Assembly (NCBI GenBank): GCA_001630475.1
Contig: KV419475.1
Location: forward strand, 1-46,134
From: Sistotremastrum niveocremeum HHB9708
Taxonomy: Eukaryota > Basidiomycota > Agaricomycetes > Sistotremastrales > Sistotremastraceae
Reading direction: 5' to 3'
Length of the DNA: 46,134 bases
The stretch's first letter is position 1. Each line of letters opens with the position of its first letter. The notes beneath the pieces are model-generated. The model had not been told where the DNA came from and searched no databases. It saw only the letters and a list, made by a program, of their open reading frames with translations. This document shows, piece by piece, positions 9,916 through 44,131 of the stretch. A program made the translations under genes and the position numbers.

Positions 9916-12900
9916 CACTACGGAATGTCTCAACCCTTTGTGCGGTCGCCTCGCCTTGACAGACTGCTACGCGGTCGCGACCGCGTTGCCCATCTACAGC
10001 AAGAATTCGAGGACTTGCGTGCCGCATTCCACCATGACGCTGCCCTTGTCTTCGTTCAGCCATCAGATCCTGATGCACCATCTCCCTCTACTAGCTCTAT
10101 CGCACTATCCGAAACCCACGTACGAGCTCGAGAACAAGTGACGGGCAAGCTCCAGCTACAGGATACGCATCCATTCAACGTCAACTTCCATTCTTATGAG
10201 CAGAAACTCGTCCACATTCTCCTTGCTCTAGATGACATTTCCCATCACTTTAAAGAAGAGCTCACGATTGCAAAACGGGACAAGGTTGTGGCACAAGTTG
10301 AAGCCGAATGGATAAGGCTAGACGGTATTCGCAAAGAAGAATGGAGGAGGCAAACGCGACTCCGTCGAGAACTCGGCTCTGATTTGACCCGCCGAGATAA
10401 GATGAAGGTCTGCACGTTTGATACAGGTATTCAAATTTCCCATAGATCAATTTTGATCTTTCTCATCGTGCGTACCCAGCAAAATACTTGCATCATAGGG
10501 ACAGAAGGCCCAGTGATCCTGCCATCCTCGCCGCCTATCTACTGGCGGCTATCAAGTACCTCAACAACAACGATTCGCAAGCAGACTCAGGTCTGACCCT
10601 CGCGTTCGCAGACGTCATGCTGCAGCTCAGCAAGAGTACAAGCTCTCAAAAGACGAAGCCGAAGCTGCACGCCGAGCTTCCGGCTGACATTCGCTCTGTT
10701 CTGAAATCGTTAGATCTTGAGCCAGAGTTGATATCATATCTCTGTTGCCCTAAATGCTACAAACTGCACTCGCCAGATCGGAACAATTTGAGCAAGGAAG
10801 AGCCGCAAGTCTGTGAAGGCGTGGAATTGGGAGGCGACCGGTGTGGTACTGCTTTGGAAAAACCCAGAGTTGTGATCGACAAACTCCACCTTATTCCGCG
10901 CAGGACCTTTCACTATCACAGTCTACGACACCACATCGCGCGGCTTCTTTGTCGTCCGGGTTTCGAAACCCTGCTTGACGGTGATCCTTTCTCAAAACCC
11001 AACGATGGGAAGCTCAGAGATATCTGGGATGGCTCTGCTCTGCGGACTCTCAATGGACCCGACGGAAAACTCTTTTTCGGCGAGAAGCCAGAAGGAGAAA
11101 TCCGCCTGGCGTTTGACATTAGTGTCGACGGCTTCAATCCATATGGATCCAAAGAGGCAGGGAAACAAGTATCTGTTGGCGCCATATATATGGTCTGTTT
11201 AAATCTACCATATGAGGAACGATACCAACGAGACAATATGTTTCTCATCGGACTCATTCCAGGACCCGGGGAGCCGTCTCTCGATCAGATTAACCATCTT
11301 CTTGAGCCGCTCATAAACGATCTCCTCCTATTCTGGGAGCATGGCGTGCACTATAACCAGACCGCGATGTACCCTAAAGGTCGATTAGTACGCAGCGTTC
11401 TTGGTCCTGCCGTATGTGATATGGTGGCCTCACATCAAGTCGGCGGCTTCTCGTCTCATTCAGGAACACACTTTTGCCCTTCTTGTTTCCTACGCCTCGA
11501 GAATATCAATAACCTTGACATGAAGCGTTGGCCAAAACGTGACGACATTTCTCATCGTCTGATGGCTGAAGAGTGGAGAACAGCGAGTTCTGCAAAAGAC
11601 CGAAAAGAGTTGTGGGAGCAGAATGGTATCCGTGATACGCCGCTGCTTCGTCTCCCCTACTGGAAACCGACATCTTGGGTGCTCTTATGCACAATGCATG
11701 CATTCTTCTTGAACAATTTTAAACGGCACTGCCGGGTCGTTTGGGGCATGGATATCAAGTCAAAGGATGGTGATGGGCTTATGCCCGACCCCAATGACTT
11801 TGAGCAGGCTCCAACAAAGGCTCAGATTGCGAAAGGATGGCGAACCCTTCGATATTCCAAAGACAGCGCAGTTCAAAGGCTACCACGAAAACTTTTGATG
11901 TGGTTATGCTCAGAAATACGGCAGATTCCTGAACAACGTGAACGCAAAAAGAAAAGGCTATCGGCGATTTTGTTATCTTATGTGAGGTCGCGTTGTATCT
12001 GCCGTGTTGCCTTACTGATGTACATCCATCTCAGCGAAAGACATTGAACTGGCCAATGTCGCGTCACGATGAGGAACCCATTGACGACGAAGACGACGAA
12101 GACGACGAAGAGCAGCCATCGCCAGCAGAAGTACACTACGCCACAGTCGTTTATCAGTGGGAGCACTCGAAGAAGGGGATCAAATCGCTGAATGCAAGAA
12201 CCTTGCGAGAACTGTGCCGCCTGAAATTAGATGCGAGCGCCATCATTGGACTGAAAAGACTGACTGCGAAAGAGATGATTGGACTCTTGGATTCTGAAGT
12301 GAGCTCTTTTATTATATATCACTCCTTTCACACGTCTCTGACGTTCGTTAGCGTTACGCTTCTGGAATCGCCCATCAGGATGGGCGTGTGAAAATTCGTG
12401 ATGTAGAAAAGTGCAAGGAGGCTCGTGCTGCTAAAGCCAAAGATACCAAAGTGCTTGGCCAAAATGTCTTAACCGCTGTTCGTGATGACATAGCCAGGAC
12501 AAAATTGCCTTCTTGGATATCCCCAGCACCGAACAACCTTGGAAGCGCTGCTGCTGGCAAGCTCTCTGCAGATCAGTGGCGAATAACGTGCTCAGTCCAT
12601 CTTGTTGTTACCCTTGTCAGGCTTTGGGGCAGCCGACCAGCATCAGACCGGCACGCAAAAATGCTGAATAATTTCATGGATTTAGTCACAGCCACCAAAT
12701 TAGGCACTGCGCGAGAACTGTCCGAGTCGCGTATCCAGGAATTCGAGAACCATATGGTTCGCTACTTGCGAGAGATGCTCAACCTTTTCCCTCATGTTGG
12801 TGTAACCCCTAGCCAACACAATTCCCTTCACCTCCCTTCAATGTTTCGAAATTTTGGTCCCGCACACGGATTTAGTGCGTGGCATTACGAAAGGTGGAAC

Positions 12901-24823: not shown

Positions 24824-24829
24824 GATTCT

Positions 24830-24943
24830 GAATATTCTGGCGGCGATTATTCTAAATATTCTGGTGTTGATTCTGAATATTCTGGTGGCGATTATTCTAA
24901 ATATTCTGGTGTTGATTCTGAATATTCTGGCGGAGATTATGCT
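24830..24943 (+). repeat. 45-bp tandem repeat, 2.5 copies
   Basis: Units begin at 24830, 24875 and 24920 with a strict 45-bp period; the first two differ by one base in the part compared. Each unit is built from smaller AATATTCTGG-like pieces. In the frame 24689-24958 it encodes EYSGGDYSKYSGVDS twice, plus a partial copy and a stop. The multiple of three keeps the frame, but I cannot tell whether the ORF is expressed. A/T-rich relatives (TATTCTCCGG, AGAATAAAC) are scattered to about 25150. Confidence 0.85.
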
Positions 24944-24959
24944 AGAGGAATATACTGAA

Positions 24960-29030: not shown

Positions 29031-30676
29031 TCATTGAATACGTATCAGCCAACTGAGTACATCGAGATTACCTAATGCAAATAAAAATACAGAAAATGCA
29101 ACAAAAGTACAACGAGCCGATATGAGATCGTAAAGAGAACATAGGATGAAAACGTACGGTGCATACGAGCTTCCCCGGCCATATGGTACATGGCTGCCCA
29201 TCTAGCAGCGCGCTCGAAGATTGGACCAGGTGCCTCATGAAGAATGCAAAGAGCAGCGCGTGCCTCTTCGTCATCTGGCAGATACGTCGTCGTGATCTTC
29301 CAATCCTCCCGGTACTCCCAAAGATCCGACACCTCATATCGGACCCACGCAACGATCAAAATCGTAATGCACATCACAGGCATAGCGAGGGTTCCCGCGA
29401 TAGGAGCAAACGCGAATCGCAAGCCCTCATCCATGATAGGAATCCAAACGAGCGTGATCAGATGTGTGACCAACCAAGAGCATAGTACAGCAGTGTAATA
29501 AGGCTTCGAGAAGCTTGGGATGAGCGATTTAGCTGGGACGAGAACTCCAGGACTGAGTTCTGGGTCGTTTTCGGGGAGAAGAGCGACGGCGAGGCTTTGT
29601 GCAAGTAATGAGCCTTTCTCGGGATGATCTTGGATCCAGTTGTTGAAATCGTAACGATAGCAGAGGGCGATCAGGGGACCTTGGAGGATGCTCCATAACA
29701 TTGAGATTACCCAGCCGCCCCATTTGAGGGAGTTGTGGGCCCACCATTCTGGGCGTTCCGAGATGATTGGGGATGCGTATTGGATGTAGGGCGAGCGGGG
29801 TTGTTGGGAGGGGAGACGGAAGAAGAGCATGAGGCCGCAGACGATGTATATTGTCGACTACATTGACAATAATGAGTTGCAGATCTTTCAGTGAATCCAA
29901 GTCACTTACAAGTGTCATGCAGAATTTGATAGACCGTTTCATGGTCATCCTCGGGAAAGGATTCAGGTTGATCATGTAAACGGTGGAAATGGTCAGGAGA
30001 ACGATGGCCATTCCGTTGTCAAATAATAGAGCAGCCAAGCTTATGAAGGCAGACGAGAACATCAAAGACCAGACGAGTAATCGCCCGTGATCTTGTAGGT
30101 AGTCGGTTGGCACTTCACAGATTTTCACATCTGACATGAATTAGGAAAGTGTCCTGATTATTGAGTAATTCACATACCACCGTCTAAATCCCGGCGACAC
30201 ATGAAGCGCACCCAAGTGAATTCGCGATATATGGTCTGTGGCCGAATATTAATGAGCGCGGTTCAGAAATAAGAGTTAGAAAATTGTTGACCATAAAGAA
30301 GGCCACGGCCAGCACCCCTCCTAAAAACACTCCGAACCACGAGTCGATTACAACGCCAGGAATTAGGATGCCCATCCGAGGAAGATTAATGAGCACTAGC
30401 ATCACCACGCCGACAACGACGGTGATTGCTAGAGACGCTCTTTGCTCCCATTTCCTTCTGTCGCGCTCTTCAACAGATCTAATCTGCACCAACACCGGAG
30501 TCTCCTGCACTGCAAGCCAGTTCTGCAATCCAATATCCTTGCGTCAGGGAAAGCTTTGATATAAAGGTTTATGCAAGGCTCACCCTCAAGGAGGTTGGAC
30601 TAACGAGCGCATACGCGACCAGTGCTGGCAGAAAATAGGAATAATAAACCGAGAACGTCTCTAGAAAATTGGCCAT
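29031..30676 (-). CDS. Signal peptide peptidase-like membrane protein lacking catalytic aspartates (about 447 aa)
   Basis: Exons starting at ATG 30676 join through short introns to about 447 residues with many hydrophobic helices. The C-terminal half follows the A22B (signal peptide peptidase) order. A helix ends PLIALCYRYD (cf. PGIFIALLLRFD). Then come KPYYTAVLCSWLVTHLITL, FAPIAGTLAMPVMCI (in place of QPALLYLVPACI) and VRYEVSDLWEYRED (cf. KGEVTEMFSYEE). Fifteen residues before the D of RYD, where the family has the aspartate of GLGD, this protein has W256. No YD motif is visible in the preceding helix (residues about 190-215), and PAL is API. I infer a catalytically dead member in the ER or another endomembrane. 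It is paralogous to the gene at 42121-44131. No PH domain follows; the tail is short. The similarity rests on motifs read by eye. Confidence 0.6.
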
Positions 30677-34751: not shown

Positions 34752-36254
34752 CTATTCTACGAAGATCGTGGTGGAAAGGCAAGATTGCGTTGAGAGACTA
34801 ATCTCATCACCAATCTGTTTGGTGTGCGAATCTCGAATTACTCCCCAAGCTCGAAGAATATCCTGACGTAAGCTATCAGCTTGGTATATGACTTGGAGAG
34901 ACCATACCACTGGCGTACCCTTTGGGTGGCAAAAACCATGAAATTTATCAAAGGCACTATATGACTTTGTCACTCTGACTGCGCGAGCAATCATAGTCTA
35001 CTCACGAGTTGCCACATGCGTTGAATACGCGAGGGCCATCCCATCCCGTTCTCGACCGGTGAATGCAGCGGTGTACAGCGTACAGCTACAATATATGCAG
35101 TTACTTTGAACACAAACTGGGCTGGAGAACATACCCTACGATCTCCAATATCGTAAAGGTCAAGATACGAAGAAAAAGTGCTCTGTTGCATGAAGCATCG
35201 AGGCCAATCCTGTCAGCTGCTTTTCTCCTGCGCCAGTAGATTCTCCCGAACAGGACTTTTCATGCGAGTTAGATTGCTGGATAATCATGATTGATCTGGA
35301 AGGTTCTTACTCTGGATCACAAACATTCCAGCTGCTCCGATCATCATTTCAACGTACAAAACCAATCCTCCAGCACTATCGACAGCGTAGCATCCTCAAT
35401 GATCCACCGACAGTTGTAGAAAATCCCAGCACTCACAAAGTTCCATCATAATAAATGCAGAAGAAAGCGTCGGGGTTTCGAAAGAGGTGTTGAGGAGATC
35501 GAATGCCATCCTGGAAGGCCAACAGAATGCATGTATCACAAGCCGAGAAGATCAGACAGTGAACGTGAAAACGCACCATGACAGTGATGAGAAGATAGAG
35601 GAGAAAGGTCAGGAATGAAAAGCTCAAAAACTATTGGAGAAGATGCAGCGTGATTGGAGTAAAAAACACTTGATGCAGGTCACATACGAAAAATGTCCTG
35701 AGTGTGGTATTTTTTCCCTTGATATTGCCTTTAACTGCGCAACGCCAAGACTACAGTACCAAGTTATCAGTGACACTGCAGAATGTTCAAATACAAGTAG
35801 GCTCACTTCGAAAACGAAAGCAAAGGCGCTTATTATGAACCTGTGAAGCTATGACGATCACTAGTGAATTCCTGAGCCTAGAATAATGCATACGCCGAGT
35901 CGAGGCCACGCTTGAGTGCCGCTTGAGCAAGACAAGTGGCCTGATCAAGTTGGACATCCATCCACTTCCCCGTAAACAACCTGACGAATGTCAGAGATGT
36001 CATGGTTCCTCAGATAGTAGAACAAAGCATCGCGTCTCTGCCACTTACAGGATCAAATGTACAGAGGCTTCTAGAATAAGGACCAGTAATAAATTGTAAA
36101 CGACCGGAAGTCGAGGGGTAATAGTCTTGGATATGCATAAAGTGAGAAGCAACGCGATCAAACCTGCTTGGCCAGCAAGCATGAAGGCAAACCATGTCAA
36201 TTGCCAGGCTTTCGCTCCGGACCCAAGAGATGTGGTTACATAGGTTTGAGTCAT
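34752..36254 (-). CDS. 7TM (GPCR-like) protein, copy 1 of tandem pair
   Basis: Exons from ATG 36254 follow the same plan as the copy at 36847-38320. TM1 is WQLTWFAFMLAGQAGLIALL and TM2 is RLPVVYNLLLVLILEASVHL. A SWRCAVKG loop follows, then TM4 FLTFLLYLLITVM, then DGIRSPQHLFRNPDAFFCIYYD, and TM5 GGLVLYVEMMIGAAGMFVIQ. The third inner loop is basic, RIYWRRRKAADRIGLDASCN. Next is TM6 LFLRILTFTILEIV, then CTLYTAAFTGRERDGMALAY. The C-terminal RQDILRAWG segment ends STQSCLSTTIFVE. Seven helices and a basic loop between helices 5 and 6 suggest a GPCR-like topology, but no classic receptor motif is visible and no ligand can be named. The exon encoding TM7, near 34890-35020, is hard to join, so this copy could carry a lesion there. 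It is strongly similar to its neighbour at the DNA level. Confidence 0.6.
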
Positions 36255-36846
36255 GCTATCGAGAGAGCGGAGGGTACAATCGGTGACCCGGATGAAACTC
36301 CACTGCAGTCACTTCACCACAAGAAGGTGCCACTCGGGATCAGAGGACAGAAAACATCTCAGAAGGTCGGAGATGCTGTGGTGCTACTGGTAACCATATC
36401 CTCTTCAAAACGATACATAGATGAAATGTCTGGCTACTGTTGTGCTCAGCGAAGTAGTATTGATGGTGGATAGACCCAATTCGGCGAAAGTCCGACTCGT
36501 TCCGACTCGGCCGCCCTCTTTGAACTGCCGGCGGATCACTATCGATCACTTGTCATAGCACATCCGAGGTTGGCCTAGTCGAGCATACTCGTGGCTGTAA
36601 GACTTGAGAGAAGGCCCTGATGCCAATATTTCAATCTCCCTTGACGACAGCCTGTCCGAGTCAATGCCATAGTCAGGTCCACGACTCGAGCTCATAGCTT
36701 GGCTCGTAGAGATACGAGAATGCCACTGACAGATAAGTTGCTCCAATGTCTGATACCCGCAAGTATAATCATGAGCTTCTGCCTCGAGCCCCTGAGTAGA
36801 GCCGGAAATCAGAGATAGTATCCGTCCGATTCTTCGGTTATAGACC

Positions 36847-38320
36847 TTATGGTACAAAGATAGTAGTGGATAGACCAGATTGGGTCGAGTGCGTAGTATC
36901 ATCAACGTACTTCCTACTATTTGATTCTGGTATCAAACCCCATGCTTGAAGAATATCCTGCCGCGGAAGTGTCAAGCTCAAGATCAGTGTTACAGAAAGC
37001 CTGTACTAGTACCTTCTGAGTGGCGAAAACAAGGAAATTCACAAACGGCACTAGATGACTTTGTCACTCGGATCAATCAACAATACATATACTACTTACC
37101 AATAGATACGTATGTCGAGTACGCGTGGGCCATCGCATCCTGCTCTCGACCGGTGAACGCCGCAGTGTAAAGGGTACAGCTACTGCTAGTCAGTTTATTG
37201 GGACAGAGATAAATCTGAAACGTACCCTACAATCTCCAATATGGTGAACGTCAATATGCGAAGAAAAAGCGGGCCGTTGCATGAGGCGTCAAGTCCAATC
37301 TTGTCGGCTGCTTGTCTCCTGCGGTGATAAATCCTGCCAAACAAAACTGTTGGTCTCCATCAGAGGCGCTTCATGTGCCTTGAACGAATCAGAAATATCT
37401 AACTCTGGATTATAAACATTCCAAAAGCTCCAACCATCATTTCGACATAAAGAACCAAGCCTCCGGTACTGTTCAAATGAACATCGCGATGTTCATGATT
37501 CAAATAAGATAGTGCTCACAAGGTTCCATCAAAGTAAGTGCAGAAGAATGATTCGGGATTTCGGAAAAGGTGTTGGGGAGACCGGATCCCATCCTATAGG
37601 CAATGCAACTTGTCTAAGTCGAGAAGGCAATATGATTTAGTTAAGACGCACCATGACAGTGATGAGAAGATAGAGGAGAAATGTCAAGTAAGGAAGGCCG
37701 AGTGCCTAGAAGAGCACAGATGTGTGAGGCAACGAAGTTCATGTGCGTGGTGTTTCGTCTCACATACAATGCAGATCCTTAGCGCTCCATTTTTAGCACG
37801 CTCGCTACCTCTGACTGCACGACGCCAAGACTATGAAACCTTTAGTGATGCTCTACGTTGTTGATGGAAAATCTGAATGACTTCAAACACGAAGGCAAAT
37901 GCGCTGATGATAAACCTGCAAAGTTGTTGCGATCAGAACAGTGTCTGCTGTGATGCTGGAGGTTCATACGCTGAGTCGATTGCACGAACGAGAGCAGCCT
38001 GAGAGAGGCAAGCGACCTGATCAATCGTGTCATTCATATACTGTCCCGTAAAGAGCCTGATGGACGTGTGAGACGTTCTTCACATTCTTCAAGGACCGAA
38101 TCACTTACAAGAGCGAATGGACAGCTGACTCAAGGATGAGAATGATATATAAGTTGTAAAGCACGGGAAGTCGAGGTTCAAGAGATTTGGATATACACGA
38201 CGTGAGGAGCAAAGCAATCAGTCCTGCTTGCCCAGCAAGCATGAATGTGAACCATGTCAATTGCCATGCTTTGGCTCCCGTTCCAAGAGACGTGCTCACA
38301 TCAGCTTGAATCACTGGCAT
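36847..38320 (-). CDS. 7TM (GPCR-like) protein, copy 2 of tandem pair
   Basis: Exons from ATG 38320 join in phase. TM1 is LTWFTFMLAGQAGLIALLLT and TM2 LPVLYNLYIILILESAVHSL. Then come LFTGQYMNDTIDQVACLSQA, TM3 RFIISAFAFVFEV, SWRRAVRGSERAKNGALRIC, TM4 LPYLTFLLYLLITVM, DGIRSPQHLFRNPESFFCTY, and TM5 GGLVLYVEMMVGAFGMFIIQ. A basic loop follows (ILFGRIYHRRRQAADKIGLD), TM6 LFLRILTFTILEIV, CTLYTAAFTGREQDAMAHAY, and TM7 VSIVPFVNFLVFATQ. The tail is RQDILQAWGLIPESN...STQSGLSTTIFVP with stop 36847-36849. It is about 330 residues and reads as a complete gene. It is probably a plasma- or endomembrane 7TM protein of a fungal lineage-specific family. Function is unknown; a receptor role is inference from topology only. 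Confidence 0.7.
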
Positions 38321-38967
38321 GTTAGCGAGGGAGTGGAAGCGAGAGCGAGTCGGTGACCGCTCTCAAACGTGATCGAGAATTCCTCGTCGGACTCTAGTCA
38401 TTTGAGTGCAACAACCAGCGTCAGCGTCAGCCAGATTGACCAGTGTGTAACAAGGGCCAACACTAAACTAACTCGAATTACCGTTCGAGTTGTGCTACTG
38501 CACTGATCACCGTATTGGCAGAGAAATCGTCCAAGCGACAGAGTGCTACATTTCCGAGTCGTGTCCAAATTAAACTGCCGTCAGTAAGGCTGGTCCATGT
38601 AACGAAGGAGGTAGCGAAGTAGCGTTGATCATGGATTCGGACCTAGTCGGCGATTTTCGGCTACCATCTAACAGACTAGTCTTTGAACTGGCGGGAGAAA
38701 CACCGATCATTTGATCCGCTAGAGCATCAGTCACATCAAGTAACTCGACAGTAGGGGTGGTACCGCTTGCAGGGCCCGCGGCTGTGAAGAATTGGGGGGA
38801 TTATCGATTCAATTATTTCTCGTTTCCACTCGCTGATTGGCTTTCCGCAGTCTAGTGTCGAAGTTCGCAACACCTTAGTTCGGCGAACGCCGGGAGTACT
38901 AGTAGCTTTACCTGCCTGGCCCGATCACTCGAGGTTTTCTGATCGTCGAGCAAAGCAAATTCCACAT
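38321..38967. other. Intergenic region between 7TM copies
   Basis: No gene. A stretch near 38672-38715 (CTTTGAACTGGCGGGAG, then CCGATCATTTGATC) resembles one at 36519-36551 upstream of the other copy, so the tandem duplication included promoter sequence. Confidence 0.45.
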
Positions 38968-41421
38968 TTATACATTATGGTTAATAGTTGACTCGGTATC
39001 AAAACATCTAGCTGCGAAGACTGGAGACGAGACATAAGTGGTTTCACCATGTTCAACCGGGTCAGAACTAATGGGAAGTTTACGACCGAACCAGATCGAT
39101 AGTATGTCCTAACATCAATGTTAATTTCTGGGAAGATCTACTGCCGAGGATTTACCTCTTGGGTGGAGAAAACAAGAAAGACAATGAGAGGGACTAAGTT
39201 GAAAATCAGACCGAATCCTTTCGGACGGAGAAAACGGAGTGAAGTACCGGATACCAGATAGAACGAGAAAAGATAGTGTATAGCTGTTTGTATTTTCCCA
39301 TTGAACGAGGTGCTGTGAAGAGAGAGGCTAGGCCACGAGTTAGAGATCAATGGTTGAGAGCAGTGGTTACGTACCCAATGACTTCCATTGTTGTGAAGAA
39401 CGTGATGCGGACGAAGAGCGATCGATTGATTCGAGTCTGTAAACCCAGATTGGGGAGAACCCGCCTCCTCCTCCAGAAAATGGTGCAAAACCAGACTAAT
39501 GAAGTTGTCGTCTGTCTAAATCAAGACGCTAGAATACGAAGAAGTTATCAGTACGTCCAAGTATGGTTCAGTGAAACCTCACAATCGATCGTCTATGTAT
39601 GTGCAAAAGAACGTGTCTCGGTTTCGGAAAATTCTATCGGGGTTTTTCATCCCCAACTAACGGGAACAGGATCTGAGTTAAGAACACTCGGGAATAATTG
39701 GATATGTACCACCATGACCGCAATAAAATAAGCAAATAGATGAACATACGGAACCCCCAAACACTACACTGCCAGAAGTTCCAGTGTTCAAAAAGAATCC
39801 TGGAGCTCCAGGAGAGTTTAAGTATTTGTGCCAGAATTACTGAAAGGTTCCTTTCGTTTTGGTTATTCGAAAAAATGAAAATAAATGTCGGACTTCATTC
39901 GGGCATGGTTCGATTTGGTTTGACGCGTCTCGGCAGTGTCGGCAGCCCCTTCCAACATTGGCGGACATTGGCGGACATTCGGAAACGTTGTTGTCCTTTG
40001 CTCCTTTGTCTTCTCCGTCCATCATCCTCGTCCGTCACTGTGCCCTCAAACCACCTCCCTTTCTCTGCGACCGTCTTCAAGCCAGTTCCAATCTATCATC
40101 CCGCGCTCACAACTAGCTTCCATCTACCGGTGCTCCTCATCGAACCGTTCATCAGCTTTGGTCCAGTAATGGAACAGACGTGGCACCAAGCATGACGTGA
40201 GACGGCAACTCGAAAGAACACTTGTCAATGAGATTCTCAAGATCGCACTTCAACATTCCCTCAAGTTCTTCTCGTAGATCTCATGATTTCTGGCAGCTGG
40301 TTTCAACGTCTCATGTACTACTGGCTCCGACTCTCCGAGGACTGTGTGGCTTTTGTGATCTGACCTCCCATCTCTCTCTCTGTTTGATCTCGGAACGTCA
40401 CATTCTTTCGGTCATTCCTAACCATCCTTTGCTTTGCCTTCGAGGCATCTTGCTCTCCTCTTTCCCTCAATCCCGTTCCTCACAGTGCTGATTTGTTCAG
40501 CAAGCTGGTTCTACAGTACTTCTAATACTGGTAGCAATATGTACAGTACAGTGGCTGTAGAACGAGCAATAGTAATGTTTTTGAACCACCCAAATCTTGC
40601 GCAGAGCAATCCAAATCGGGGAATGGATATAAGAAATTGGGAACGGATCTGGATTATTCGCGGGAAGAGAAACCCAAAATCAACATTCTTAAAATATCCT
40701 TTGATCGAGAATGTTTGAAATAATTCGGTTGGAAGTATTCTTTTTGAATCCTGCCGGAACTCATAAAATATACCTCGCGCGAGGATTCTTTTTTAACACT
40801 GGAACCTCTGCCTGTGTAGAATAGTTACCAGTAATTGTAGAGTGAGTGAGTCGAGGACGTACAATCCAATGCCGTAGACGTGGATTTTTGGGTTGGCTTC
40901 GTCCACGAACGGCACAACGCCAAGACTTGTCAAAATATCAGAACACTGTTCCTTGACGTTCCGAAATAATCGACCTCAAAGACCAAGAAGAACGTAGATA
41001 AAATAAACCTGCTCTTGGTGAGCTCGTGCTTTTAGTATATGAAGGAGGAGAAGTTGACTCACGCGGCGTCGAGCCCGTGCTTGAGAGCGGCCTGAGCTAA
41101 GCAGGTTACCGAATCTATCGCGGGATTCATATATTCTCCCGTGTAGAGTCTGCTTCCCCAAACGGGTATGAATAAAATCAAGAATAATAAGAAAAGGGAT
41201 CCCTCTCACAGGATCAAATAGACGTGCGTATCGAGATACGTGATAAATAGAAGATTATAGAGAACGGGAAGTCGAGGAACTAGAGTGTTGGAGGTAAACA
41301 TCGTGAAGAGCAAGACCATTATCCCAGTTTGGCCAAGAATTATCAAGGTAAACCATGTCAATTGCAAGGCTCTGGGATTCGATCCCAGCTGTAATGGACC
41401 AGTCGTATTCGTGTAGGTCAT
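38968..41421 (-). CDS. 7TM (GPCR-like) protein with a transposon in one intron
   Basis: Same exon plan as the two copies to its left. TM1 is LTWFTLIILGQTGIMVLLFT and TM2 LPVLYNLLFITYLDTHVYL. Then LYTGEYMNPAIDSVTCLAQA with ALKHGLDAA, TM3 RFILSTFFLVFE, SWRCAVRGRSQPKNPRLRHW, TM4 CLGVPYVHLFAYFIAVM, and MKNPDRIFRNRDTFFCTYID. TM7 is FNLVPLIVFLVFSTQ, followed by EDILSIWFGRKLP and a longer tail ending at 38968. The TM5-TM6 exons (39150-39560) were read less completely. The intron 40862-39764 is 1,099 bp instead of about 50 bp because it holds an inverted-repeat element. The start chosen is the ATG at 41421; another in-frame ATG at 41475 exists. It is more diverged than the tandem pair. Confidence 0.65.
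39767..40816. mobile_element. Nonautonomous TIR transposon (1,050 bp) with TA target duplication
   Basis: The ends form an inverted repeat. Including the TA and one flanking base on each side, 39764-39801 pairs with 40782-40819 at 34 of 38 positions; the shared cores are GTTCCAGTGTT and AAAAAGAATCCT. Direct TA dinucleotides lie at 39765-39766 and 40817-40818, so the element itself is 39767-40816. TA duplication and CAC..GTG ends suggest a Tc1/mariner-like element. Inside I find no transposase; a third, inverted relative of the terminal core lies at about 40731-40761, and a GGCGGACATT-type unit repeats at 39955-39980. Removing it leaves a 47-bp intron of normal size. Confidence 0.85.
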
Positions 41422-41475
41422 GACCGCCCGGAGTCGTGAAAAGCTGGCATCAGAGGATCGACCCGAAAACAGCAT

Positions 41476-42120
41476 AGGAGACCTGTTATACTGTTATTGC
41501 GTTGGGAACAGAGAAGCCAAGAGTGAGGCCATAACGGCGATCAGGAGACTCCAGGCTGGTTGATGTGCAGGAGATAATCGAGCAGGGCACAACTTGATGG
41601 CTGTGAGAGTGAACTTGACTCATGTTTCCCGGAAGGGGACCCGAAAAGAATTTGGCGAAGAGACCCGGAATGGTGCATGAGTTCGACAGCCTCGAAGTGC
41701 TTTATATTTGCTACAGTCGCGTCTGCTGTAATGCTATCTTTCCAAGTGAATTAAGACCAGAAAAGACGTGAGCTATTTAATTGGGCCAGGGGGCCAGGGT
41801 ATTAGAGAATAGGTAGAGCGACGCGTTTACGGTGTTGAATTGGACAGGTTCAAGGTTTCGTATCTCCGAGATCACCGATGTACGGTTCCTATATACCAAC
41901 TCTTCTCTCTGTATCGACATCAAATCAAAAATTCTTGATCATTAGCAGAGCCATGGTATGATGTTGCGAGGACGACCGTAAATTTAACGATATTCTGAGC
42001 GGGGATGCGGAGTGATATCCAGGTGGATTTCAGAGACGCGACGGTGAGAACAAGTATGGTACAGTAAGGGAAGGTCGGCGTTATTATACAATTTAATCCG
42101 AGACTGATCTAATGACAATC
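41476..42120. other. Intergenic region between the 7TM gene and the PH-domain gene
   Basis: No open frame with support. It should hold the 5' region of the 7TM gene and the 3' end of the gene stopping at 42121. Confidence 0.4.
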
Positions 42121-44131
42121 TTAAAGCGAACTCTCGGATTCATCAAAGTTGAGCGGAAGTGGCGGCAATTGATATCTCCCAATCAGATCTTGAATGGCGC
42201 ACTGCCATGCTTTCAAAGAAGCCTCGTCATCAAATAACAGCCTGAAAGGCCCCGCACTCGGTGCTTCCGGATGAATACTCAAGCTGAGCTCGTCCGAGGT
42301 CGAAGTATCAGAGACACTCTTGATGTGTCTGATGTAGATTCTGCCTTTGACTTCGAGTGTGCCCTTCCTTCCGCAAGTTCGACAATTTGATCCCGTTGCA
42401 GAAGGACCGGAAGGTTGTGCGCATTCAGTCACGCACAGAATAGCTTCTTGGAAGAGATATACAGAGAATTTCCGGACGACGGGAGGCTGGGAGACGAAAA
42501 GCTTGTCGAATTTGTGAAGGGGGCCAAGTTCTGAGATTGGTTGACCATGACAATCAAGGATGCATTTTGCTAGTTCCTCAGCCTGAGAGACACCCGTTGG
42601 TACAGACTGAAGCACAGAAGTGCTGGTGGTGGATTCAGAGTTCGTCAATTCCTCAAGGGAAGTCGAAAGCGTAGGCGAGGATGACGTGGGAGACTCAGAC
42701 TTCTCCTCACCCGCCTCGGGCTTTTCTTCCACAATGACGACTTCCACCTTCCAAGTCTCCCTGTAATTCCAGACGGTTTTACTCTCCCCTCGTCGCCAAG
42801 ATTGGAGGAAGAACCCAATCAAAATACAAGGGACGGAAGCCAGTGCACCGATTGGTGCAAAATATGCTTCAGACCCTTCTCCGATGAGAAGGGTGATGCC
42901 AATGACGGATAGAGTCTGCGCGAAGAGAGCACAGCTCAAAGCAGTCTTGAAATATGTCTTGGGATAGGCGAAGCCGAGACGTGAGCCGGACGGGACAAGG
43001 ACGCCGCGGTGGATGGCTGGGATGTATCGTCTCTTCGGTACGTTTATGATTTTGAGCTTGGACTGAATGTTGGACTGCTCGAGCTCAGGGTTGTTACTGG
43101 CCCAGATTGTGTAATCGAGGCGAAGGGCCATCGTCACAAGCACGCCCGGCAGGATGGCCCAGATGGCCGGTCTGAACATCTCATTATAGAAGACATCCGC
43201 CGTGCGAGGGATGGGAGCGTCTTCTTTGGGTGATAGAAAGATTAGCTTCATGAGAGGGGAGATCGCAAATGCTCCGATCGTCTGCAGTCGTACAATTAGT
43301 GAGTGCAAACACATCATTAATCCAAAGACTCACAGAAAGAACGACTACCTTAGCAGCAACCCATTTCATAACCATCGACGATCCATAACTAGCCCGGGAT
43401 GCAATATACACCATGCTCACGGAGATCGCGAACTTGAAGACTCCGATGTCATGGTGTGCACCGATGAGCACAGAGACGGCTAGAAGAAGGACAATGAACA
43501 AAGCCCTTTTCTGTTGTTTCGCCAGCCCCCGTCGGATCGCACGTAGTCGGATCGCTATAAATCACAAGTCAGTCATTCTGATGACACCAAAGAACGCATG
43601 ATTCGAAAGTGCACCTCCCGACGGTAGAGCCACAGCGACATATAGGGAAAGTTCATTTTCATATCTGAGCATCTGCATGTCAGGTTTTAGCATCCGTTCA
43701 CCTCGAAATAGTTACAAGAACGCACATAACACAGGCCGAACAACGCCAGCGTGTTGAGCACAGCCATGCTGGCGCATTCGTTCACTCTGTCGCCGACGAC
43801 AGAGATATCGTAGTAATTGGATACGACGCTCCCGAGGAAGAGAAACAAGCAGAAAATGAGCCCAAATCGCTTGAATCTCCTCAAATACTGCTCGAATTTG
43901 GCCTTCTGCGCGGTTGTGAGCGCTTTGATGGGAACCTTCTTCGCCGCAACCCAGAACTAAGAAGACACGGTTAGCATATGTTTAGGTCCACACGTCGTGA
44001 GAGATCGCAAGAGACCAGTCACTCACTTTCAAAGACCCATGGGCGGCCAACAAGTAACCTGCAAAGATAGCTGCTATGTTTGGGCCGTAGTCACCAAAAG
44101 CATGTCCTAATTGTCGGAACATCTCGTCCAT
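42121..44131 (-). CDS. Signal peptide peptidase-like pseudoprotease fused to a Cdc24-like PH domain (591 aa)
   Basis: Exons 44131-44027, 43956-43726, 43672-43615, 43554-43334 and 43281-42121 join in phase to 591 residues. About nine hydrophobic helices occupy residues 15-365. The A22B order is visible. SPLMKLIFLSP matches APIKLVFP, and PGVLVTMALRLD (250-261) matches PGIFIALLLRFD. TYFKTALSCALFAQTLSVIG follows, then YFAPIGALASVPCIL in place of QPALLYLVPACI, and RRGESKTVWNYRE in place of KGEVTEMFSYEE. The aspartate of GLGD is W246 and PAL is API; no YD is seen in the preceding helix. An S/T/E-rich linker (390-440) leads to a PH-like fold at about 457-572: KFDKLFVS, FSVYLFQEAILCVTE, VKGRIYIRHIKSV, FRLLFDDEASLKAWQCAIQD. 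PH domains bind phosphoinositides or proteins on the cytosolic face. I infer a catalytically dead membrane protein. Confidence 0.65.

What the first reader, a model, noticed from the sequence alone, without database searches (positions are those of the whole stretch)
42121..44131. Presenilin-fold pseudoprotease with the catalytic Asp replaced by Trp
In this protein, and in its paralog at 29031-30676, the segment matching TM7 of signal peptide peptidases keeps the downstream P-G and (R)xD landmarks. The aspartate of GLGD is nonetheless tryptophan (W246 here, W256 in the paralog), PAL is API, and no YD motif is visible. The same unusual substitution in two diverged paralogs argues for a conserved, selected pseudoenzyme clade, not decay. 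Dead intramembrane proteases are well known among rhomboids (iRhoms, derlins); I know of no described fungal equivalent in the aspartyl group.
Basis: partly seen in the sequence, partly recalled or inferred. Interest (0 to 1): 0.8.

Follow-up and report, generated by a model that had tools for sequence, protein, structure and literature searches.

The report
Family of dead signal-peptide-peptidase-like proteins
This fungal gene and nine relatives in the same genome look like copies of a membrane-embedded protein-cutting enzyme that have lost the parts needed to cut but were kept anyway, one of them with an added signalling-type domain, which suggests they now hold or guide other proteins instead of cutting them.

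Summary
The gene at 42121-44131 (minus strand) has five exons and 591 codons. Its TM7-TM9 part aligns with signal peptide peptidase (PF04258). Trp246 falls on profile position 200, the GxGD aspartate, as does Trp256 of the paralog at 29031-30676. Six seeded searches of this genome gave ten paralogs and no more; each was modelled with four introns of phases 0,0,1,0. One intact canonical SPP is also present. None of the ten has Asp at the GxGD column (W in 5, A in 2, G, C, I). PAL is gone in 10 of 10, and the segment placed as TM6 has no YD. Conservation is strongest in TM1, the TM7-TM8 loop and the C-terminal tail.

Best reading: a maintained, non-proteolytic SPP-derived family that binds clients or partners without cutting. 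Loss of catalytic residues is shown; function is inferred. Weaknesses: 4 of 10 members hit PF04258, one at its cut-off; homology over TM1-TM6 is not shown; structure prediction failed (pLDDT 36); no family member from another species could be found in the collections held.

The parts
44027..44131 (-). Gene A exon 1, start codon and TM1 (MDEMF...GSLK)
   Evidence: splice model, GT/AG, phase 0; TM1 columns are the best conserved TM of the family
43726..43956 (-). Gene A exon 2, 231 nt (TM2-TM3)
   Evidence: hydropathy
43615..43672 (-). Gene A exon 3, 58 nt, ends in phase 1 (58 nt in 8 of 10 family models)
43334..43554 (-). Gene A exon 4, 221 nt (TM4-TM5, start of TM6)
42121..43281 (-). Gene A exon 5: rest of TM6, TM7-TM9, linker, PH_10 domain, stop; one uninterrupted frame of 386 aa
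43159..43161 (-). Codon of Trp246 at the position of the catalytic Asp of GxGD
   Evidence: sequence; PF04258 position 200
43114..43122 (-). R259-L260-D261 (R-x-D at the end of TM7; R and D invariant in 10 of 10)
42193..42531 (-). PH_10 (PF15411) domain fused to the SPP-like part
30584..30676 (-). Gene B (paralog) exon 1, TM1
30292..30522 (-). Gene B exon 2 (3' end uncertain: weak donor GTCAAC; another model ends at 30307)
30178..30235 (-). Gene B exon 3, 58 nt
29910..30130 (-). Gene B exon 4
29072..29857 (-). Gene B exon 5 (rest of TM6, TM7-TM9).
   Evidence: the fifth intron is read by eye
29693..29695 (-). Codon of Trp256 at the GxGD Asp position of gene B

Best explanation
Genes A (42121-44131) and B (29031-30676) belong to a family of ten multi-pass membrane proteins in this fungal genome. 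They derive from signal peptide peptidase (family A22B) and have lost the catalytic residues, so they should not work as intramembrane aspartyl proteases. The most likely mechanism, by analogy with iRhoms and Derlins, is that the membrane part still binds transmembrane helices or signal-anchor-like clients. Its conserved, probably cytosolic face would recruit partners: R-x-D at the end of TM7, an insertion of 31-37 residues in the TM7-TM8 loop with a consensus G-V-x-I-P...P-x-F-x-K-x-Y-F, and a C-terminal Y-x-E-x-W. Gene A adds a PH_10 domain on this side, which would tie the complex to phosphoinositides or signalling partners. Shown: loss of the GxGD Asp and PAL, number of paralogs found, PH fusion. 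Likely but weaker: loss of YD. Inferred: fold over TM1-TM6, topology, client binding, partner recruitment.
For: PF04258 matches A, B, C45 and C34a in one register starting 2-3 residues after the lost Asp, with position 200 shown to be that Asp. The family profile against SPP plus SPPL2a gives HHalign Prob 81%, single-comparison E 1.2e-5, score 43.8, in the same register; 60 block-shuffled versions reach at most 23.6. Against SPP alone the score is 38.3 (Prob 49%, TM8-TM9 and tail only), with at most 22.3 in 60 block shuffles and 20.5 in 60 full shuffles. The residue 15 before the Asp of R-x-D is W,W,W,W,W,A,A,G,C,I, against D in canonical SPP. PAL is lost in 10 of 10. The TM6 window has no acidic residue in 9 of 10, one at the edge in C34a. 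Introns of phases 0,0,1,0 in 10 of 10 models, and a 58-nt exon 3 in 8 of 10 (models partly guided by one another). dN/dS about 0.26 for C52a-C52b. An intact canonical SPP with YD, GLGD and QPAL is on C2, so normal SPP function is covered elsewhere. Mean conservation is highest in TM1, the tail and the TM7-TM8 loop, lowest around TM4, TM6 and loop 8-9. Human SPP with its GxGD Asp mutated (D265A) was the positive control for signal-peptide binding in a pull-down (PMC13252537, a preprint, figure-legend passage), so an Asp-less SPP can still bind.
Against: Six of ten members do not match PF04258 even at E 10, and A itself reaches only E 0.0035, below the curated cut-off. A single-sequence search with canonical SPP at E 10 finds none of the ten, and none of the six seeds finds the canonical SPP. 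The HHalign probabilities are modest (39-81%) and their E-values are for one comparison, not a database search. Similarity is shown only for TM7-TM9 and the tail; TM6 is placed by weak alignment and helix counting. The AlphaFold2 model was worthless (mean pLDDT 36). Hydropathy counts give 4 to 9 segments, 7 for A. C34b is the weakest member and has four acidic residues around the TM7 site. No evidence of expression, client binding or localisation. TM2-TM6 are poorly conserved, which does not speak for a conserved client groove.
Confidence: 0.57

Rival explanations
1. They act mainly on the canonical SPP, as dominant-negative or regulatory partners that form mixed dimers with it, as dead homologs of other proteases can do.
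For: Human SPP is dimeric, with TM2-TM5 closest to the dimer interface (PMC13252537, passages). One intact SPP is in the genome.
Against: TM2-TM5 are among the less conserved parts of the family (mean top-residue share 0.33-0.37), which is not what a conserved interface with one partner would give. Ten diverged copies for one SPP is a lot.
Confidence: 0.12
2. Still a protease, with the catalytic pair moved to other residues (for example the invariant Asp of R-x-D).
For: R259 and D261 are invariant in 10 of 10.
Against: R-x-D is also kept in canonical SPP beside GLGD, so it has another role there. No acidic residue inside the TM6 window of 9 of 10, and PAL is lost. Mutating either Asp almost completely abolishes activity in SPP/SPPL (PMC7768045, passages).
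Confidence: 0.04
3. An unrelated multi-pass membrane family whose TM7-TM9 resembles SPP by chance.
For: Only 4 of 10 members reach PF04258; no shown similarity over TM1-TM6; canonical SPP does not find them directly; modest HHalign probabilities; no useful fold prediction.
Against: Four members align in one register; the family profile scores far above shuffled controls against SPP and against SPP plus SPPL2a. R-x-D, FxKPYF, the TM9 proline and the (R)GE...Y tail come in the same order.
Confidence: 0.18
4. Pseudogenes or relaxed, decaying copies.
For: Very high divergence (13-23% identity to A), and one member (C34b) with a poorly hydrophobic TM7.
Against: Ten open frames with the same intron phases in the models; neutral drift of the A coding sequence to only 0.1 changes per site leaves 0 of 200 simulated copies open; dN/dS about 0.26 in the closest pair.
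Confidence: 0.05

Closest known systems
Signal peptide peptidase / SPP-like proteases (MEROPS A22B, Pfam PF04258)
   Same: R-x-D at the end of TM7, the F-x-K-P-Y-F start of TM8, the TM9 proline, the (R)GE...Y tail; probable 9-TM layout.
   Different: No GxGD Asp or PAL in any of ten members and no YD where TM6 is placed; 31-37 more residues in the TM7-TM8 loop; a Y-x-E-x-W tail; a PH domain in gene A.
Rhomboid pseudoproteases (iRhoms, Derlins, Dsc2)
   Same: Dead relatives of an intramembrane protease kept as separate groups; proposed here to bind TM clients without cutting.
   Different: Rhomboids are serine proteases of another fold; here the parent is an aspartyl protease. iRhom function is known from experiment (PMC3149277, start of abstract), only inferred here.
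SPPL2c
   Same: Once regarded as a pseudogene and pseudoprotease of the GxGD family (PMC7768045, passage).
   Different: It was later shown to be expressed and to have substrates; it is not a precedent for a truly dead member.
PH_10 proteins: a RING-PH gene on C11 and a RhoGEF-PH_10 gene on C2 of this genome
   Same: Gene A's PH region is 44% identical over query residues 212-391 to C11.
   Different: These look like soluble signalling proteins; gene A carries the domain on a multi-pass membrane protein. The C11 RING is a below-cut-off Pfam hit and its vWA stretch was read by eye. The Ste5 layout (RING-H2, PH, VWA) is from PMC10584130 passages; the Far1 and CDC24 layouts are recalled.

Membership tests
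SPP/SPPL intramembrane aspartyl protease (A22B) | Sequence match to PF04258 above the curated cut-off | tested here: inconclusive
   Gene B at the cut-off (23.8 as single exon, 23.3 against 23.3 spliced); gene A 17.4 bits; 4 of 10 members match at all.
SPP/SPPL intramembrane aspartyl protease (A22B) | GxGD aspartate in TM7 | tested here: not met
   W246 in A, W256 in B; no Asp at that column in 10 of 10.
SPP/SPPL intramembrane aspartyl protease (A22B) | YD aspartate in TM6 | tested here: not met
   No acidic residue in the TM6 window of A or B; 9 of 10 overall, one edge Glu in C34a. Placement of TM6 is itself by weak alignment.
SPP/SPPL intramembrane aspartyl protease (A22B) | PAL (QPALLY) motif in TM9 | tested here: not met
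   Absent in 10 of 10.
SPP/SPPL intramembrane aspartyl protease (A22B) | Nine TM segments, presenilin-type fold | tested here: inconclusive
   Hydropathy count 7 in A, 9 in B (the last perhaps intronic), 4-9 in the family, 10 in the approximate canonical SPP model; AlphaFold2 pLDDT 36.
SPP/SPPL intramembrane aspartyl protease (A22B) | Proteolytic activity | not testable with these tools
   Needs a cleavage assay.
Non-peptidase homolog (pseudoprotease) of A22B | Homology to A22B beyond chance | tested here: met
   TM7-TM9 and tail only: PF04258 hits in one register, HHalign score 43.8 against at most 23.6 in 60 shuffles.
Non-peptidase homolog (pseudoprotease) of A22B | Catalytic residues lost while the gene is maintained | tested here: met
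   Residues lost; open frames and intron phases; dN/dS 0.26 in one pair. No expression data.
iRhom/Derlin-like function (works like) | Binds TM clients without cleaving and steers their fate | not testable with these tools
   Inference only.
PH_10 domain protein | Match to PF15411 above cut-off | tested here: met
   68.6 bits against 27.5.

The most novel reading that the evidence does not exclude
A diversified fungal family of non-cutting presenilin-fold proteins that work as membrane client receptors. In gene A the PH_10 domain links client capture to phosphoinositide or mating/polarity-type signalling, giving the aspartyl intramembrane proteases a counterpart of the iRhoms.
Probability: 0.15. 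Interest if true: 0.85.

Novelty: new variant of a known kind. Interest (0 to 1): 0.62.

Why it matters
Dead members are well known among rhomboids and have taught much about how membrane proteins are recognised without being cut. In my literature searches (listings, with passages from a few papers) I saw no described group of dead SPP/presenilin proteins. If these ten proteins are such a group, they separate helix binding from cutting in the family that includes gamma-secretase, and would offer naturally inactive scaffolds for asking what the fold does beyond catalysis. The PH fusion gives a handle on the pathway involved.

Tried and rejected
Structure prediction of the exon 5 parts of A and B gave pLDDT 36 and was not used for any fold search.

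Profile search of the PDB with the family gave one chance match (E 0.73); gene B alone gave none. Scans of viral contigs and of the bacterial and archaeal contigs found no relative of the canonical SPP (34, 36), of B (79, 80) or, in viral contigs only, of A (81). These collections are not meant to hold fungi, so this says little. NCBIfam had no match.

My first placement of YD, on the 'VYxxN...SMK' segment in exon 4, was dropped: alignment with canonical SPP and helix counting put that segment in TM5 and TM6 at the exon 4/5 junction. A first joint alignment left the YD column unaligned, and a global HHalign put TM6 and TM7 out of register.

The idea that the Trp is the conserved hallmark was rejected: 5 of 10 only. 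The trees are poorly supported; the Trp members need 2-3 changes on them, with one origin not excluded.

Full report
What is there. Gene A runs on the minus strand from 44131 to 42121 with exons 44131-44027, 43956-43726, 43672-43615, 43554-43334 and 43281-42121. It encodes 591 aa, with Trp at 246. Gene B starts at 30676 and has Trp at 256. My five-exon model of B ends at 29072. The second intron of B has a weak donor and its position is uncertain.

Is it SPP-like? A hmmscan of the ten family proteins gave PF04258 for A (E 0.0035), B (5.7e-5), C45 (2.3e-4) and C34a (0.012). The other six did not match at E 10 (HMMER's filters drop most weak matches). Only B is at the cut-off. In A, B and C45 the match begins at profile position 202, two residues after the Trp; in C34a at 203, three residues after the corresponding Cys. 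A fragment of this genome's canonical SPP that begins at the GLGD Asp aligns from 200, and one that begins at the YD Asp from 144. The Trp therefore sits on the catalytic position. HHalign of the family profile with canonical SPP gave score 38.3, Prob 49%, over TM8-TM9 and the tail only; 60 block shuffles reached at most 22.3, 60 full shuffles 20.5, and the reversed sequence 15.4. Without A and B it gave Prob 39%, E 3.1e-4. With human SPPL2a added to the canonical side it gave score 43.8, Prob 81%, E 1.2e-5, now from the P-G of TM7 on and in the same register as Pfam; 60 column-block shuffles of that pair reached at most 23.6. These E-values are for a single comparison. A search with the canonical SPP alone at E 10 found none of the ten. 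The homology is thus good for TM7-TM9 and the tail, and not shown by sequence for TM1-TM6.

The family. Six seeds were used: A and B at E 0.1 and C52b, C34a, C40a, C34b at E 1. Together they give ten loci: two on C82, two on C40, three on C52, two on C34, one on C45. B and C34a return all ten; A, C52b and C40a return nine, missing C34b; C34b returns five. Apart from these there was the PH domain of C11 (seed A) and one hit at E 0.109 (seed C34a), taken as noise. The search scores only its best candidates, so ten is a lower bound. All ten were modelled with four introns of phases 0,0,1,0, and exon 3 is 58 nt in 8 of 10. The models were guided by one another and some splice sites are weak, so this agreement is partly by construction. 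One canonical SPP with IYDIWW, GLGD and QPALLY lies on C2.

The active site. The residue 15 before the Asp of R-x-D is D in canonical SPP and W, W, W, W, W, A, A, G, C, I in A, B, C45, C40a, C40b, C52a, C52b, C52c, C34a, C34b. C34b is doubtful: it has four acidic residues close by, the alignment leaves a gap there, and it is the weakest member. PAL is lost in 10 of 10. The window taken as TM6 has no acidic residue in 9 of 10; in C34a one lies at the edge. The placement of TM6 comes from alignment with SPP and helix counting. At the hydropathy threshold used the count was 7 for A, 9 for B, 4 to 9 over the family and 10 for the approximate SPP model. Mutation of either Asp abolishes or almost abolishes activity in SPP/SPPL (PMC7366577 and PMC7768045, passages). 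In human SPP D219A and L319A are severe (PMC13252537, a preprint, passages).

Selection. In all 45 pairs codon position 2 differs least, and position 3 most, with one tie. dN/dS is 0.48/1.83 for C52a-C52b, the only pair computed. Simulated neutral drift at 0.1 changes per site leaves 0 of 200 copies of gene A's frame open. Mean share of the commonest residue is 0.58 in TM1, 0.50 in the tail, 0.48 in the TM7-TM8 loop, 0.47 at the start of and in TM8, 0.44 in TM7 and 0.29-0.40 elsewhere. Columns at 70% or more are thickest in TM1, the TM7-TM8 loop and the tail, scattered elsewhere, and absent from TM4, TM5 and TM6. G131, R259, D261, P302, Y315, E380 and W382 are invariant. From the Asp of R-x-D to the Lys (or its equivalent) of the K-x-Y-F motif is 46-52 residues against 15 in canonical SPP. 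With SPP's topology (recalled; a passage of PMC13026331, puts the TM6-TM7 loop in the lumen) the TM7-TM8 loop and the tail face the cytosol.

The PH domain. Gene A ends in a PH_10 domain (68.6 bits against a cut-off of 27.5) in the same exon and frame as TM7-TM9. PH_10 was found at three places in the genome: C11, C2 and gene A. The C11 protein is 44% identical to A over query residues 212-391. It has a weak RING match (E 0.0018, below cut-off) and a vWA-like stretch that I read by eye. RING-H2, PH and VWA is the layout of Ste5 (PMC10584130, passages). The C2 one lies beside a RhoGEF match on the same strand, as in CDC24 (recalled). No other family member showed a convincing second Pfam domain, where tails were trimmed and so not all scanned.

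Mechanism. Shown: catalytic residues are gone at GxGD and PAL, and the genes look maintained. Inferred: binding of membrane clients or partners without cutting, with a cytosolic face as the conserved working surface. Support from elsewhere: SPP D265A served as the positive control for signal-peptide binding (PMC13252537, figure legend). [quoted passage not shown]

Literature. Searches gave listings (two found no paper); I read passages of five papers and none in full. I saw no description of a dead SPP/presenilin group. SPPL2c was once called a pseudoprotease and later shown to have substrates. The basidiomycete yeast Phaffia rhodozyma was reported to have one SPP and no further detectable paralog, so the family may not be general in basidiomycetes, or may be too diverged for that search. 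UniProt and MEROPS could not be searched here.

Changes on checking. The confidence of the main reading was lowered slightly (0.60 to 0.57) and that of chance resemblance raised (0.15 to 0.18), because the HHalign probabilities are modest and the E-values are for single comparisons; the loop insertion was recounted as 31-37 residues.

Noticed in passing
window 34915-41493: Repeated blocks (two or three copies, 61-86% identical) that look like tandem copies of another small-exon membrane protein gene; three frames share a stretch like QLTWFTFMLAGQAGLIALLLT...RLPVLYNL.
   Followed up: no
window 10446-12047 (+): Open frame matching Transposase_21 (tnp2, E 8e-14), a transposon.
   Followed up: no
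window 24824-24958: Short repeats with a 45-nt unit, GATTCTGAATATTCTGG....
   Followed up: no
L028 (G000:C11:83000-89000): Gene with a weak RING match, PH_10 and a vWA-like stretch, resembling the Ste5 layout; its PH is the closest found in the genome to gene A's.
   Followed up: partly
G000:C52:146530-150713 and G000:C40:31149-33355: Clusters of three and two genes of the same pseudo-SPP family on one strand each, suggesting growth by local duplication.
   Followed up: partly
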